64,000 nucleotides of DNA from Ornithinimicrobium tianjinense (GTDB lineage Bacteria > Actinomycetota > Actinomycetes > Actinomycetales > Dermatophilaceae). The notes below the pieces were generated by a model. It was not told where the DNA came from and did not search any database. It saw nothing but the letters and a program-made list of their open reading frames with translations. Positions 25 through 60,101 of this stretch are shown here, piece by piece (position 1 is the first letter of the stretch; every line of letters begins with the position of its first letter). Both the position numbers and the translations under genes were made by a program. Where the stretch lies: NCBI RefSeq assembly GCF_014636495.1, contig NZ_BMEM01000001.1, forward strand, positions 651,892-715,891. The letters run 5' to 3'.

Positions 25-888
25 ATGACGTTCACGCTCGACCGGGTGCTGCGCTCGGCCGCCGCGCAGCTGGGCGATGCGGGGGTGCCCAGCCCGGCGG
101 TCGACGCCGAGGTGCTCCTCGCGCACGTCCTGGGTGTCGACCTCCCGGACCTGCGCCGCTCCCGGCTGATGGGTGAGCTGCTGCCGGAGGGGGCGGACAC
201 GGCATACCAGGACCTGCTGGTGCGCCGCGCGACGCGCGTGCCGCTCCAGCACCTGACCGGCACCGCGTCCTTCGCCGGGCTCGACCTCCAGGTCGGGCCG
301 GGCGTCTTCGTGCCCCGGCCGGAGACCGAGCTGCTCGTCGAGCTGGCCGTCGCCGCGCTGGAGGACCTCGACGCCCCGACGGTCGTGGACCTGTGCACCG
401 GTTCGGGCGCCGTCGCCCTGGGCGTCGCGCGCCGGAGGCCCGACGCCCGGGTGGGTGCCGTGGAGCTCTCGCCCGACGCGCACCGGTATGCCGTGGCGAA
501 CGTCTCCCGCTCCGGCCTCGCCGTCGACCTGCGGCTGGGGCCGGCGCAGGAGGCGTTCGGGGACTGGCTGGGGCAGGTGGACGTGGTGACGAGCAACCCG
601 CCGTACATCCCGCCGGGCATGGTGCCGGTGGACGTGGAGGTGCGCGAGCACGACCCGGAGCTGGCGCTCTACGGCGGTGGCGAGGACGGGCTCGACGTGC
701 CACGCGAGGTCGCGGCCCGCGCCGCGGAGCTGCTGCGCCCGGGCGGCGTGCTGCTCATGGAGCATGCCGACGTGCAGGGCGTGACGCTGCCGGCGACGCT
801 CATGGCGGCCGGTTGCTGGGCGAGCGCGGATGACCATCGCGACCTGGCGGGCCTGCCCCGGGTGACGCGGGCCGTCCGCACCCGCTGA
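25..888 (+). CDS. prmC: Peptide chain release factor N5-glutamine methyltransferase
   Basis: PrmC (HemK) methylates the glutamine of the GGQ motif in release factors RF1 and RF2, using S-adenosylmethionine, in the cytoplasm. The 287-residue product has an N-terminal helical domain, an FVPRPETE motif (95-102), a SAM-binding glycine loop VDLCTGSGA (121-129) and the catalytic NPPY tetrapeptide (191-194), all diagnostic for the family. Length is normal. In Actinobacteria prmC typically lies between prfA and the tsaC-wecA-atp genes, and the genes to the right here fit that order; prfA would lie just outside the left edge. Two copies of the dispersed 9-mer GGTATGCCG (one inverted) lie inside the gene at 200 and 485. 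The ATG at 25 is the first in frame; sequence to the left is too short to judge its ribosome binding site. Confidence 0.96.
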   Translation: MTFTLDRVLRSAAAQLGDAGVPSPAVDAEVLLAHVLGVDLPDLRRSRLMGELLPEGADTAYQDLLVRRATRVPLQHLTGTASFAGLDLQVGPGVFVPRPETELLVELAVAALEDLDAPTVVDLCTGSGAVALGVARRRPDARVGAVELSPDAHRYAVANVSRSGLAVDLRLGPAQEAFGDWLGQVDVVTSNPPYIPPGMVPVDVEVREHDPELALYGGGEDGLDVPREVAARAAELLRPGGVLLMEHADVQGVTLPATLMAAGCWASADDHRDLAGLPRVTRAVRTR

Positions 889-900
889 GAGGGCCGCGCA

Positions 901-939
901 CGACGACGGCCCCCGTCCGTCAGGACGAGGGCCGCGTCG
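901..939. terminator. Stem-loop terminator between prmC and the convergent small gene
   Basis: A G+C-rich inverted repeat of about 17 pairs with one bulge (arms 901-918 and 923-939, loop GTCA) sits between the 3' ends of prmC (plus) and the 27-residue peptide gene (minus). Its position and symmetry suggest a bidirectional intrinsic terminator. No T-tract follows, which is common in high G+C Actinobacteria. Confidence 0.6.
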
Positions 940-956
940 TTGAGAGGGTTAGTGCA

Positions 957-1040
957 TCACAGCGCGTTCATCAGCCAGATCACCAGCACGATGATCAGCA
1001 GGATGCCAACGATCGTCCAGATCAGACCACTACCACGCAT
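957..1040 (-). CDS. 27-residue single-span membrane peptide
   Basis: A very short reading frame beginning MRGSGLIWTIVG and ending in a run of Ile, Leu, Val and Trp, then ASN-Ala-Leu and TGA. Nearly the whole peptide after residue 5 is hydrophobic and long enough for one transmembrane helix; the N-terminus is basic (Arg2), predicting an N-in orientation. A strong Shine-Dalgarno AGGAGA lies 7-8 bases upstream of the ATG (minus strand), which is the best evidence that it is translated. It converges on prmC across a shared terminator and is divergent from tsaC. Function is unknown. Similar tiny membrane peptides occur in Actinobacteria, but I cannot assign a family. Confidence 0.7.
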   Translation of the reverse strand: MRGSGLIWTIVGILLIIVLVIWLMNAL

Positions 1041-1242
1041 TGCGTCACTCTCCTTCTGTCGTCGAGGCGCAGGGAATGCGCCTCGTCCCACCGGCCACTC
1101 TTGACGAGCGGCCCGTGGCTCGCAACTCTAAATGCCACCTGTCACGCGGTGCAGCCAAACTCGCCGACGGTGCGAAGATGTGAGACTGGACCGCGGGGCC
1201 GCCTGCGGCACCCGCACGCGCTCGCCCCACCGAGAGGACCCC

Positions 1243-57800: not shown

Positions 57801-57987
57801 TGAAATGGCCTCCGCAGAGAGCGAGCCGGGTCACAGGTCGTCCCGGCTGGATGAGTGGTGGTGTGAAAGTACCCGCCGAGAGGCACCCTGGCGAGACCTT
57901 GTTACCGACTTGTGACCTGTGGATCGTCAGCGACCCCCACGCGTTGCGCCGGGCGAGGCAGGACGCGGGATGTGCGACCATCGCCCG

Positions 57988-59004
57988 GTGAGCGTGCTGG
58001 TGACGGGAGCAGGGTCGTGGCCGGGCGCCGACGTCCGCGAGGCCTTGCGGGTGGTCAGGGGAGAGCTCGCCGGTGCCCTTCCCGACGGCGTGTCCGGTAT
58101 GCCGTACATGCCCGAGCTGCCCGGGCGCGGGCCGGGCACGGAGCTGGTCGGGCGGTCGGCCCACCTGCTGGTGGACCTTCCGGTGGACCTGCAGCCCCAG
58201 GGGTGGCGCCTGGTCGACCTGCCCGGCCGGGACCACGAGCGGACCGGATCGTGGTGGCGCCAGGACCTGGACGAGCTCGCCGAGGCGTTCGACGGCTACG
58301 AGGGCCTGCTGAAGGTGCAGGTGGCGGGGCCGTGGACGCTCGCCGCCGCGCTGTGGCTGCCGCTCGGTGACCGCGTCCTTTCCGACGCGGGCGCCACGCG
58401 TGACCTCGCTGCGTCCCTGGCGGAGGGTGCCGCCGCGCACGTGAGCACGGTGCGCCGGCTGGTCCCCGGGGCCGACGTCGTCCTGCAGGTCGACGAGCCG
58501 TCACTGACCGCGGTCACGCTGGGCCGGGTGCGGTCGGAGTCGGGCTACCGGGTGCTGCGGACCCCTGAGGACGGCGAGGTCGTCGCCGCGCTGAGGCAGG
58601 TGGTGGAGGCCGTCCGGACGGCCGGTGCCGTGCGGGTCGCCGTGCACTCCTGCGCCCCCGAGGTGCCACTCGGCCTGCTGCGGCAGGCGGGCGTCGACGC
58701 GGTCGGGCTGGACACCGCGCTGCTCGGGCGCGAGGGCTGGGAGCGGGTGGCCGAGCTCCTCGACGCGGGGGTGCGGCTGTGGGCCGGTGCGCTGCCGACC
58801 GACGGGACGGGCACGGCATACCGGGCACCCGCGGAGCGGCTGCTGCGCTCGTGGCGCGAGCTCGGGCTGCCGGCGCGGGACCTCGAGGACGTCGTCGTCA
58901 CGCCGGCCTGCGGGCTCGCCGGCCTGACGCCGTCACAGGCGCGCACGGTCACCGCCACGAGCGTCGAGCTCGGGGCAGCGCTCGCCGAGGCCGCCCTGGC
59001 CTGA
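57988..59004 (+). CDS. MetE-like (cobalamin-independent methionine synthase C-terminal domain) protein
   Basis: 338 residues with the TIM-barrel fold of the MetE C-terminal half. GAGSWPGADVREAL starts it, then LLKVQVAGPWTLAAAL, LQVDEPSLTAV, the zinc-binding VAVHSCAPEVPLGLL and a C-terminal VVVTPACGLAGLTPSQA (second Cys). The zinc ligands His and two Cys are kept, but the N-terminal half of full MetE is missing, as in the actinobacterial homologues next to ligA. The methyl donor is unknown. GTG 57988 is chosen; an in-frame ATG at 57970 is an alternative. Two 9-mer copies (58096, 58814) lie within. Confidence 0.87.
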   Translation: MSVLVTGAGSWPGADVREALRVVRGELAGALPDGVSGMPYMPELPGRGPGTELVGRSAHLLVDLPVDLQPQGWRLVDLPGRDHERTGSWWRQDLDELAEAFDGYEGLLKVQVAGPWTLAAALWLPLGDRVLSDAGATRDLAASLAEGAAAHVSTVRRLVPGADVVLQVDEPSLTAVTLGRVRSESGYRVLRTPEDGEVVAALRQVVEAVRTAGAVRVAVHSCAPEVPLGLLRQAGVDAVGLDTALLGREGWERVAELLDAGVRLWAGALPTDGTGTAYRAPAERLLRSWRELGLPARDLEDVVVTPACGLAGLTPSQARTVTATSVELGAALAEAALA

Positions 59005-59017
59005 GCGAGCTGCGCCG

Positions 59018-59042
59018 ACCGGACAGGCGTTCCTGCCGGCCG
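59018..59042 (+). repeat. Single copy of the ACCGGACAGGCG core and hairpin
   Basis: An exact ACCGGACAGGCG (59018-59029) directly after the metE-like gene, identical to the core of the array at 15877-16239. With the following bases it can fold as CCGG-CAGG/CCTG-CCGG around CGTT, a weak terminator-like hairpin. Confidence 0.7.
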
Positions 59043-59114
59043 CGCGTCGCCGGACGAGGCCTCCTCTGTCGGTCCCCGGTGCGACCATGTGCCGGTGACG
59101 AACTCGAGACGCCG

Positions 59115-60101
59115 ATGAGCGCCCGTGCCGCTGTTCCGTGGCAGGTCTGGTATGCCGCGCTGGCCCTGATCTGGGGCTCGAGCTACCTGCTCATCAAGCT
59201 CGGCCTGGGCGCGCTGACCGGCGCCCAGGTCACCGCGTTGCGGGTCGCGTGCGGCGCCACCGTGCTGCTGCTGCTCCTGGCGGTGACCCGGACCCCGCTG
59301 CCACGCGGCCTGCGGACCTGGGGCCACCTCACGGTCACCGGGACGCTGGTCTGCAGCCTGCCATGGTTCCTCTTCGCCGTGGGCGAGGAACGGGTCACCT
59401 CGGCGATCGCCGGGATCTCCAACGCCACGACCCCGGTCGCGGCGGTGATCACGACCGCCCTGCTGCTTCCGGGAGAGCCGGTCGGGCGCCGCCGCCTGCT
59501 CGGCGTGGCGATCGGCTTCCTCGGCGTCGTGCTCGTGGCCCAGCCGTGGTCGATGACGCACGGTCCGGACCCGCTCGGCCTCGCGATCGTGCTGGCGGCG
59601 TCCGCGAGCTACGGCGTGGGGTGGACCTACGTCCGGCGCTTCCTGCACGGGGTCGACCCGGGAGGTCTGTCGATGCCGGCGGCACAGGTCCTCGTCGCGC
59701 TCGCGCAGGTGCCGCTGCTGCTCCTGGTCGACTGGTGGAGGCGCGGTCGGCCGGCGGCGGGTCCGTTCGCTCCCGGTGGCGCGGACGGCGTGGTGCACGG
59801 CTGGGACCTGTGGGGCCCGTTGCTCGCGGTCCTCGCCCTCGGCGTGGTGGGCACGGGGCTGGCCCAGGCGATGCAGTATGCCGTGGTCCGCGCTGCAGGT
59901 CCGACCGTCGCGACCAGCGTGACCTACCCGATCATCGTCGTCTCCGTGCTGCTCGGTCTGCTGGTCCTGGGGGAGTCCGTGGCTCCGCTGACGCTGGTCG
60001 GTGCCGCCGTCGCGCTCGCCGGGTCGGTGCTGATCACCCGGGCCGGACGGGCGCGGTCTGCCCCGCTCCGGACGCCCGCGCCTGCGAGGATGAGCCGGTG
60101 A
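59115..60101 (+). CDS. EamA/DMT family transporter
   Basis: 328 residues with ten predicted membrane helices in two EamA repeats (about 8-140 and 150-300). WGSSYLLIKLGLGALTGAQV and the second-half PTVATSVTYPIIVVSVLLG are typical of the drug/metabolite exporter superfamily. Substrate unknown. ATG 59115 has no strong ribosome binding site. The stop overlaps the GTG of ligA (GTGA). Confidence 0.9.
   Translation: MSARAAVPWQVWYAALALIWGSSYLLIKLGLGALTGAQVTALRVACGATVLLLLLAVTRTPLPRGLRTWGHLTVTGTLVCSLPWFLFAVGEERVTSAIAGISNATTPVAAVITTALLLPGEPVGRRRLLGVAIGFLGVVLVAQPWSMTHGPDPLGLAIVLAASASYGVGWTYVRRFLHGVDPGGLSMPAAQVLVALAQVPLLLLVDWWRRGRPAAGPFAPGGADGVVHGWDLWGPLLAVLALGVVGTGLAQAMQYAVVRAAGPTVATSVTYPIIVVSVLLGLLVLGESVAPLTLVGAAVALAGSVLITRAGRARSAPLRTPAPARMSR

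What the first reader, a model, noticed from the sequence alone, without database searches (positions are those of the whole stretch)
200..59157. Strongly over-represented dispersed 9-mer GGTATGCCG
Seen directly: I counted about 29 perfect copies of GGTATGCCG or its complement by eye (for example at 200, 485, 3440, 9792, 9820, 12283, 12326, 13716, 14335, 18372, 21446, 21634, 23911, 30420, 30557, 32031, 33285, 42423, 43865, 45904, 48058, 48099, 50627, 52273, 55253, 56641, 58096, 58814 and 59149), plus several one-base variants. With estimated base frequencies of 0.36 for G or C and 0.14 for A or T, fewer than one is expected in 64 kb on both strands. About half extend to GGTATGCCGTG. Orientation is balanced (about 14 plus, 15 minus), which argues against strand-polar motifs such as KOPS or Chi. 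Inference: a species-specific DNA uptake sequence, or a binding site for a nucleoid or modification protein. Natural-uptake sequences are known from Neisseria and Pasteurellaceae; I know of none described in Actinobacteria.
Basis: partly seen in the sequence, partly recalled or inferred. Interest (0 to 1): 0.87.

Follow-up and report, generated by a model that had tools for sequence, protein, structure and literature searches.

The report
Self-DNA uptake tags in Actinobacteria
A 9-letter DNA word occurs 1,258 times in this actinobacterial genome and is strongly enriched in most sampled genomes of its family, with related words in Janibacter and other relatives, and it most likely works as a "self" tag that lets a pilus pick kin DNA for uptake, which would make this the first known such tagging system in Gram-positive bacteria.

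Summary
GGTATGCCG occurs 29 times in the window (0.29 expected) and 1,258 times in the 3.31-Mb genome (reversed control 5). Synonymous-codon shuffling predicts 3.8 copies in the genes of a 400-kb stretch; 119 are there. It is not species-specific: 90 of 149 sampled family genomes pass an enrichment rule (the window's genus is Serinicoccus), while 386 genomes of 47 other families of the class hold at most 182 copies. Several motif-poor relatives carry a related word instead: CGAAGGGGG in all 11 sampled genomes of two genera that include Janibacter melonis (1,265-1,939 copies), GTACGRCGYC in one genome (2,977), CGATGNGG in a Kytococcus relative (160 kb read). All fit the template xxAxGNxG. Sites are twice as conserved between species as matched words, balanced in strand, inside and between genes. 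Motif status goes, with exceptions, with a tad pilus locus resembling the Micrococcus luteus transformation locus; ComEC is nearly universal and uninformative. Best reading: a DNA uptake sequence with dialects, a third family and the first known in Gram-positives, read by a Tad pilus. Uptake is untested, the receptor unknown.

The parts
200..208 (-). motif copy, in gene 25-888
485..493 (+). motif copy, in gene 25-888
3440..3448 (+). motif copy, intergenic
9792..9800 (+). motif copy, left arm of intergenic hairpin
9820..9828 (-). motif copy, right arm of intergenic hairpin
9789..9831 (.). inverted motif pair; predicted stem of 19 pairs, -42.9 kcal/mol (z -7.7)
12283..12291 (+). motif copy, left arm of intergenic hairpin
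12326..12334 (-). motif copy, right arm of intergenic hairpin
12280..12337 (.). inverted motif pair; predicted hairpin -52.0 kcal/mol (z -10.8)
13716..13724 (-). motif copy, intergenic
14325..14333 (+). motif copy in gene 13742-15091 (reader wrote 14335)
18372..18380 (+). motif copy in gene
21446..21454 (+). motif copy in gene
21634..21642 (+). motif copy in a short called gene (start uncertain)
23911..23919 (-). motif copy in gene
30420..30428 (-). motif copy, intergenic
30557..30565 (+). motif copy in gene
32031..32039 (-). motif copy in gene
33285..33293 (+). motif copy in gene
42423..42431 (+). motif copy in gene
43865..43873 (-). motif copy in gene
45904..45912 (-). motif copy in gene
48058..48066 (+). 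motif copy, left arm of intergenic hairpin
48099..48107 (-). motif copy, right arm of intergenic hairpin
48055..48110 (.). inverted motif pair; predicted stem of 26 pairs, -62.4 kcal/mol (z -11.4)
50627..50635 (-). motif copy in gene
52273..52281 (-). motif copy in gene
55253..55261 (-). motif copy in gene
56641..56649 (-). motif copy, intergenic
58096..58104 (+). motif copy in gene
58814..58822 (-). motif copy in gene
59149..59157 (+). motif copy in gene

Best explanation
GGTATGCCG (core GTATGnCG, fuller form GGTATGCCGTG) is a genome-wide repeated word that most likely serves as a DNA uptake sequence, a self-recognition tag for natural transformation, and some sister genera carry related words (dialects) of the same template xxAxGNxG. 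How it would work (inferred): a Tad/Flp competence pilus of the Micrococcus luteus kind, through a minor pilin or another surface protein not yet identified, binds DNA that carries the local dialect, pulls it to ComEA, and ComEC brings one strand in, where it recombines. Because DNA with the word would be taken up more often, the word would spread by copying of neighbouring alleles (molecular drive), to one copy per 2.6 kb in this genome; a change of receptor specificity would start a new dialect, and loss of the pilus locus would let the words decay. Shown here: the word, its dialects, their near-exclusivity, conservation, spacing, and the imperfect co-occurrence with the tad locus. Inferred: uptake, the receptor, and the drive.
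For: (1) Excess not explained by composition or codons: 347 vs 9.5 in 864 kb, 119 vs 3.8 in the genes of 400 kb; in the context G-TAY-GNC-G the rare Tyr codon TAT is used in 120 of 158, 121 of 167 and 21 of 30 cases, and 120 of the 193 TAT codons of one 400-kb stretch lie in the motif. (2) Confined to one family in the draws made: 90 of 149 family genomes pass >=50 copies and >=5x(control+1); 386 non-family genomes of 47 families hold at most 182. (3) Dialects: CGAAGGGGG 1,265-1,939 in all 11 sampled genomes of genera g38+g39 (with J. melonis and Janibacter sp. Soil728), 11-80 in the other 138; GTACGRCGYC 2,977 in G069 (control 75), whose congeners G025 and G096 use GGTATGCCG (305, 1,602). In the ten genome stretches tested, each core stands out only in its own clade. 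(4) Conservation to a congener at 77.8% identity: 41 of 80 sites exact vs 22.4% for same-composition words. (5) Same-strand neighbours within 1.5 kb are depleted: 54 vs 93, 0 of 2,000 shuffles; also in congener G119. (6) The tadA of the M. luteus tad-1-like locus: words present in 104 of 132 genomes with it, 3 of 17 without (Fisher 1.2e-6, not phylogeny-corrected); 36 of 47 genera with it, 0 of 6 without (p 5e-4). (7) Strand balance, dispersion and some intergenic hairpins, as described for known uptake sequences (passages).
Against: No uptake, binding or transformation data. ComEC is in 145 of 149 genomes whatever the motif count, so it does not discriminate. The tad association has exceptions: G047, G087 (a 73% complete genome) and J. 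melonis G037 lack the tadA match but carry 1,051, 623 and 1,939 words; 28 genomes with tadA are negative for the three words surveyed, among them all 9 of genus g2, whose locus held all seven genes in the two read (G083, G134). Pilin genes were not found beside tadC in word-bearing G069 and G078. Strand-specific spacing is not seen for the G069 and G057 words and is weak in Janibacter. In H. influenzae, orientation of the word does not affect uptake (passage of PMC1939737), so the strand effect here has no ready explanation. The CGATGNGG dialect rests on 160 kb of one genome, and in the 40 kb of G037 the CGAAGNGG ratio (1.62) is no higher than control patterns (up to 1.98), though the whole-genome count is clear.
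Confidence: 0.82

Rival explanations
1. The word is the binding site of an intracellular chromosome-organising, segregation or repair protein (nucleoid protein, Noc/SlmA-like or KOPS/Chi-like), kept because the chromosome needs it every few kb.
For: Dispersed, conserved and fairly evenly spread per 50 kb. Even spacing was once read this way for H. influenzae (passage of PMC1939737).
Against: No strand polarity (625 vs 633; no clear local skew in 800 kb), against KOPS or Chi. A change of word inside one genus (G069 vs G025/G096) would need thousands of sites to switch with the protein. Lack of words in the 6 genera without the competence-type tadA is not predicted.
Confidence: 0.09
2. A HIP1-like highly iterated word kept by a methyltransferase or by mutation/repair bias, with no role in uptake.
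For: HIP1 of cyanobacteria (recalled; no call bears on it) is also abundant, dispersed and partly clade-bound.
Against: HIP1 is palindromic (recalled); this word is not, and it has a loose sixth position plus several dialects with fixed A3, G5 and G8. Methylation was not testable.
Confidence: 0.05
3. Codon-pair bias or base composition.
For: Context-biased words exist in these genomes (up to 1.99x after synonymous shuffling, CTGCGNGA in G083).
Against: 32-fold excess after synonymous shuffling, sense and antisense alike (58 vs 2.5, 61 vs 1.2), and 1.9-fold enrichment between genes.
Confidence: 0.01
4. A transcription terminator or selfish hairpin repeat.
For: Three window pairs form strong predicted intergenic hairpins.
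Against: In 864 kb only 13 of 344 neighbouring pairs are within 100 bp, 276 of 347 copies are inside genes, and convergent intergenic DNA is depleted (3 sites in 20.8 kb). No clear flanking consensus beyond about 11 bases.
Confidence: 0.03

Closest known systems
DNA uptake sequence (DUS) of Neisseriaceae, dialects (PMC3630211, abstract and passages seen)
   Same: Short non-palindromic word (10-12 bases there), very over-represented, dialects that follow phylogeny around a conserved core.
   Different: No shared core (DUS core CTG absent here); Gram-positive hosts of another phylum; the T4aP marker PilM is not found in this genome and in 144 of the 149 family genomes examined, a Tad/Flp locus is present instead; 276 of 347 copies inside genes against 35% stated for N. 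gonorrhoeae (passage); uptake not shown.
Uptake signal sequence (USS) of Pasteurellaceae (PMC12616744, PMC1939737, passages seen)
   Same: Over-representation, no orientation bias round the chromosome, even spacing reported by some authors, weaker conserved bases next to the core.
   Different: USS core GCGG is not in GTATGnCG; no long AT-rich flank consensus seen; spacing here is strand-specific in two genomes.
Micrococcus luteus Flp-pilus transformation (PMC4322843, PMC8467076, PMC6370729, passages seen)
   Different: A term search inside PMC4322843 and PMC8467076 found no 'uptake sequence'; no sequence preference is reported in the passages seen. M. luteus sequences were not aligned here.
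HIP1 of cyanobacteria (recalled)
   Same: Highly iterated short word.
   Different: HIP1 is a palindrome (recalled); dialects tied to a pilus locus are not something I recall for it.

Membership tests
DNA uptake sequences (functional class DUS/USS) | Short word of about 9-12 bases highly over-represented in the genome | tested here: met
   1,258 copies vs control 5; 119 vs 3.8 after synonymous shuffling in 400 kb
DNA uptake sequences (functional class DUS/USS) | No strand or replication polarity, dispersed | tested here: met
   625/633 genome-wide; 8-25 per 50 kb in 800 kb
DNA uptake sequences (functional class DUS/USS) | Dialects by clade around a constant core | tested here: met
   two dialects besides the main word counted genome-wide, the fourth from 160 kb only
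DNA uptake sequences (functional class DUS/USS) | Carrier encodes DNA-uptake machinery | tested here: met
   comEA (HHH, SLBB) and comEC (Competence) side by side; tad locus
DNA uptake sequences (functional class DUS/USS) | Abundance tracks the uptake machinery across relatives | tested here: inconclusive
   104 of 132 with tadA vs 3 of 17 without, but with exceptions, no phylogenetic correction, and ComEC near-universal
DNA uptake sequences (functional class DUS/USS) | DNA carrying the word is preferentially taken up | not testable with these tools
   needs experiment
Neisseriaceae DUS proper | 5'-CTG-3' core | tested here: not met
   absent from GGTATGCCG and its complement; core from PMC3630211 passages
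Neisseriaceae DUS proper | Type IVa pilus with ComP | tested here: not met
   PilM in 5 of 149 genomes, not in the own genome; ComP itself not searched
Pasteurellaceae USS proper | GCGG core | tested here: not met
   absent from GTATGnCG; core from PMC12616744 passages
KOPS / Chi (strand-polar motifs) | Orientation bias along replichores | tested here: not met
   (origin not located)
HIP1 (cyanobacteria) | Palindromic octamer (recalled) | tested here: not met
   GTATGnCG is not a palindrome
Micrococcus luteus type Tad competence system | tad-1-like cluster beside an FtsK/SpoIIIE gene, second tad cluster with Flp, comEA/comEC | tested here: met
   against passages of PMC4322843/PMC8467076; gene order and neighbours only, sequences of M. 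luteus not aligned

The most novel reading that the evidence does not exclude
A third, independently evolved DNA self-recognition system, the first in Gram-positive bacteria: Tad/Flp competence pili of an actinobacterial family read at least four dialects of one template (xxAxGNxG), change dialect between sister genera and even within a genus, and the word's orientation matters, so that each strand carries its own regularly spaced set of tags, as if a tag fixed which strand or which side enters the cell.
Probability: 0.4. Interest if true: 0.95.

Novelty: new variant of a known kind. Interest (0 to 1): 0.88.

Why it matters
[quoted passage not shown] A third family in another phylum and with another kind of pilus would show that self-DNA tagging evolved again, would predict natural transformability of many soil, marine and sewage species (Knoellia, Terrabacter, Humibacillus, Serinicoccus, and Tetrasphaera relatives from phosphorus-removing sewage plants), would offer a genetic tool for them (put the right word on the DNA), and would make the evolution of dialects and mating barriers testable. 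Motif counts might also mark recently acquired DNA.

Tried and rejected
Codon bias and composition: rejected by Markov and synonymous-shuffle controls. KOPS/Chi: no skew. Type IVa pilus receptor: PilM absent in the own genome. ComEC as discriminator: present in 145 of 149, uninformative. Dialects in G083 (200 kb), G088 (80 kb) and G058 (40 kb): none of the four tested cores (GTACGNCG, CGATGNGG, CGAAGNGG at 0.80-1.33x; GTATGNCG 3 or fewer copies); top words in G083 and G088 look like codon context or long repeats. Strand-specific spacing in other dialects: not seen for G069 and G057. Paper searches: the word itself gives 55 papers, of which the 20 listed are unrelated by title; searches listed no actinobacterial uptake sequence that I could see in titles and abstract starts. 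That is a statement about those searches of an open-licence library only; of the papers named I saw passages, of the rest only listings. Not done: receptor identification, structure prediction, methylation, phylogenetic correction of the tad association, genome-wide survey of CGATGNGG, a survey of the other words outside the family.

Definitions used: enriched = at least 50 copies and at least 5x(control + 1) for GGTATGCCG; for CGAAGGGGG the 11 genomes with over 1,000 copies; for GTACGRCGYC at least 300 copies and at least 5x control, which names 7 genomes (G040, G048, G054, G069, G077, G102, G107; G048 already counted as GGTATGCCG-positive, hence 6 in the tally). Five genomes with 52-245 GGTATGCCG copies failed the ratio (G016, G019, G064, G085, G099) and were counted as negative, as was G054 for this word with 59; so were the two g9 (Kytococcus) genomes, since their word was not counted genome-wide. 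G092 has only a 2.7e-65 tadA match that the listing does not show and that may be a paralogue; moving it gives p = 4.2e-6; counting g9 as positive gives 5.3e-7.
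Full report
Observation. The window holds 29 copies of GGTATGCCG, 14 + and 15 -; dinucleotide shuffles give 0.29. The genome (G000, 3,309,481 bases, window = C1:651892-715891) holds 625 + 633 copies, the reversed word 4 + 1. In 864 kb that I read (two 400-kb stretches and the window) GGTATGCCG and its shifts and extensions are the most over-represented 8- to 10-mers (347 vs 9.5 for the 9-mer under an order-3 Markov model); after the core come a 57% T and a 59% G. 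Over the core GTATGnCG every single-base change tested drops the ratio from 6.0 to 0.1-1.3, except at the sixth position, where in the own genome all four bases are in excess.

Not codon bias. Shuffling synonymous codons among all called genes of a 400-kb stretch predicts 3.8 +- 1.7 copies in genes; 119 are there, 58 sense and 61 antisense. In the context G-TAY-GNC-G the rare Tyr codon TAT is used in 120 of 158, 121 of 167 and 21 of 30 cases in the three stretches, while TAT is about 9% of Tyr codons (193 of 2,168 in the first); 120 of those 193 TAT codons sit inside a sense-strand core. The alternative GTACGNCG is correspondingly depleted (50 vs 151). The word is 1.9-fold enriched between genes (71 of 347 in 10.7% of the bases).

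Where it occurs. In 149 genomes drawn from the same family (53 genera) counts run from 2 to 2,198, nearly equal on both strands where abundant. By the rule of at least 50 copies and 5 times (control + 1), 90 of 149 are enriched. In the class-wide draw of 394 genomes, 8 are of this family, and of the other 386, in 47 families, none exceeds 182 copies. Through ComEC I obtained named genomes and counted 42 of them: Serinicoccus chungangensis 1,103 (its four counts equal those of G145, same genus as the window), Ornithinimicrobium sp. CNJ-824 657, O. cavernae 501, Knoellia subterranea 943, K. remsis 1,091, Terrabacter aerolatus 489, Humibacillus xanthopallidus 1,218 and 1,025, Phycicoccus elongatus Lp2 1,265, Arsenicicoccus bolidensis 428, Flexivirga endophytica 850, Intrasporangium oryzae 630; but Janibacter melonis 4, J. 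indicus 7, J. massiliensis 4, Phycicoccus jejuensis 8, Kytococcus aerolatus 2, Dermacoccus abyssi 20, Intrasporangium flavum 19. The window's genus is thus Serinicoccus in the taxonomy behind the tool; NCBI places Serinicoccus in Ornithinimicrobiaceae and Janibacter in Intrasporangiaceae.

Dialects. I read 80-200 kb of six motif-poor genomes (G083, G126, G088, G069, G057, G144) and ranked 5-N-2 patterns. The top one in G069 is GTACGNCG (284 vs 99), in G057 (genus g9, Kytococcus) CGATGNGG (270 vs 79), in G144 and G126 (g39) CGAAGNGG (123 vs 40; 76 vs 26); the own GTATGNCG is 327 vs 58 in 400 kb (two overlapping pieces of the same word, TATGCNGT and GGTATNCC, rank above it). All share A at position 3, G at 5 and 8, and a loose position 6. 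The pattern shape was chosen from the own word, so the template is not a blind result. After synonymous shuffling in ten genome stretches, GTACGNCG is 2.68x in G069 and 0.33-1.33x elsewhere, CGATGNGG 3.50x in G057 and 0.81-1.15x elsewhere, CGAAGNGG 2.67x, 2.24x and 1.62x in G144, G126 and J. melonis G037 and 0.80-1.12x elsewhere; control patterns reach 1.99x, and in the 40 kb of G037 1.98x, so that 1.62 alone would say nothing. Whole-genome counts then settled two words: CGAAGGGGG is 1,265-1,939 in all 11 sampled genomes of g38 and g39 and 11-80 in the other 138, J. massiliensis (g49) among the latter with 36; GTACGRCGYC is 2,977 in G069 with control 75, 716-874 in the three g41 genomes, and 50 in the window's genome. 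G069 has 5 copies of GGTATGCCG, its congeners G025 and G096 305 and 1,602. G083 (200 kb) and G088 (80 kb) showed no such word.

Conservation and spacing. Aligned to congener G119 (231.7 kb, 77.8% identity), 41 of 80 own sites are exact, against 22.4% of 12,025 same-composition 9-mers; it ranks first of the 57 9-mers with six G/C and at least 40 copies. Pairs on the same strand within 1.5 kb are rarer than when strands are shuffled over the same positions: 54 vs 93.2 +- 6.8, 0 of 2,000; opposite-strand pairs are not depleted (82 in +- order, 51 in -+ order, vs 47 each). It holds without pairs under 100 bp (53 vs 86.4, 0 of 1,000) and is gone between 1.5 and 4 kb. G119 shows it too (47 vs 61.9, 2 of 1,000), Janibacter weakly (18 vs 26.1, 9 of 1,000, but 18 vs 21.7, 148 of 1,000, without close pairs), the G069 and G057 words not. 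Three intergenic inverted pairs in the window fold into predicted hairpins of -42.9 to -62.4 kcal/mol. Over 864 kb, sites are 1.1 per kb in co-directional, 0.71 in divergent and 0.14 in convergent intergenic DNA.

Machinery. The genome has comEA (HHH, SLBB domains) next to comEC, no PilM match, and four Tad-type clusters. One (C2:281064-285698) reads tadA-tadB-tadC-flp-tadE-tadE/F-tadG beside a divergent FtsK/SpoIIIE gene (Pfam recognises tadA, tadB, tadC, tadG and the FtsK gene, not the two tadE-like genes; the flp gene was not given to Pfam). In M. luteus two tad clusters and comEA/EC are needed for transformation, with tadB not strictly so, and a mutation in an FtsK/SpoIIIE gene beside tad-1 was among those studied (passages of PMC4322843 and PMC8467076). 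The likeness rests on gene order and neighbours. ComEC is in 145 of 149 genomes. The tadA of the tad-1-like locus is found in 132 of 149: words are present in 104 of these 132 and in 3 of the 17 without; genera, 36 of 47 against 0 of 6. Related genomes are not independent, so the p values (1.2e-6, 5e-4) are guides only. Exceptions are listed under evidence against.

Mobile elements in tadA. In seven genomes (G135, G143, G137, G028, G122, G146, G007) tadA is in two pieces about 4-79 kb apart on one contig, broken between about residues 192 and 234, at or shortly after the nucleotide-binding loop as I read the sequences. In the four read, a large serine recombinase-like gene lies next to a break (Resolvase/Recombinase domains confirmed by Pfam for G146 only). 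Five of the seven carry GGTATGCCG above the rule.

What it is. The set of features is that described for DNA uptake sequences of Neisseriaceae and Pasteurellaceae (passages of PMC3630211, PMC1939737, PMC12616744), without either family's core and with another pilus. I therefore say that it most likely works like an uptake sequence and is a new, separate variant; membership in DUS or USS proper is not met. The step from word to uptake is inferred.

Noticed in passing
G135, G143, G137, G028, G122, G146, G007; L278-L282: The competence-type tadA is split by insertions of about 4-79 kb near its nucleotide-binding loop in seven genomes; in the four read a serine recombinase-like gene sits at a break. 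Mobile elements seem to use this competence gene as an integration site.
   Followed up: partly
window 15878-16238 and 59019: A second repeated word, CGCCTGTCCGG, forms an array of 13 copies in two opposed blocks between genes (plus one copy at 59019); 62 copies in 864 kb, 58 of them between genes. Looks like an intergenic repeat family, function unknown.
   Followed up: partly
L227, L230, L231, L223 (G088, G069, G026, G078): Pilin genes were not found next to tadC of the tad-1-like locus in the 18 kb read (only a short tadG match in G026); G069 and G078 are nevertheless rich in their word.
   Followed up: no
own genome C1:126842-144234 and C1:1011634-1024961: Largest motif-free gaps of the two 400-kb stretches: 17.4 kb that includes a second tad cluster, and 13.3 kb of lower GC (0.67).
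   Followed up: no
G023, G054, G107, G124, the three g41 genomes, G048 and G081 (g48): Moderate counts of GTACGRCGYC (358-874), 3.4 to 8.5 times the control, suggest further or weaker dialects.
   Followed up: no
L092-L095 (G088): Repeat around TAGGTGCGGA in G088 (15 copies in 80 kb), longer and different in kind from the uptake-like words.
   Followed up: no
G049 (J. massiliensis by equal counts): Lacks the tadA match and both words (4 GGTATGCCG, 36 CGAAGGGGG), unlike the two Janibacter-bearing genera g38 and g39.
   Followed up: no
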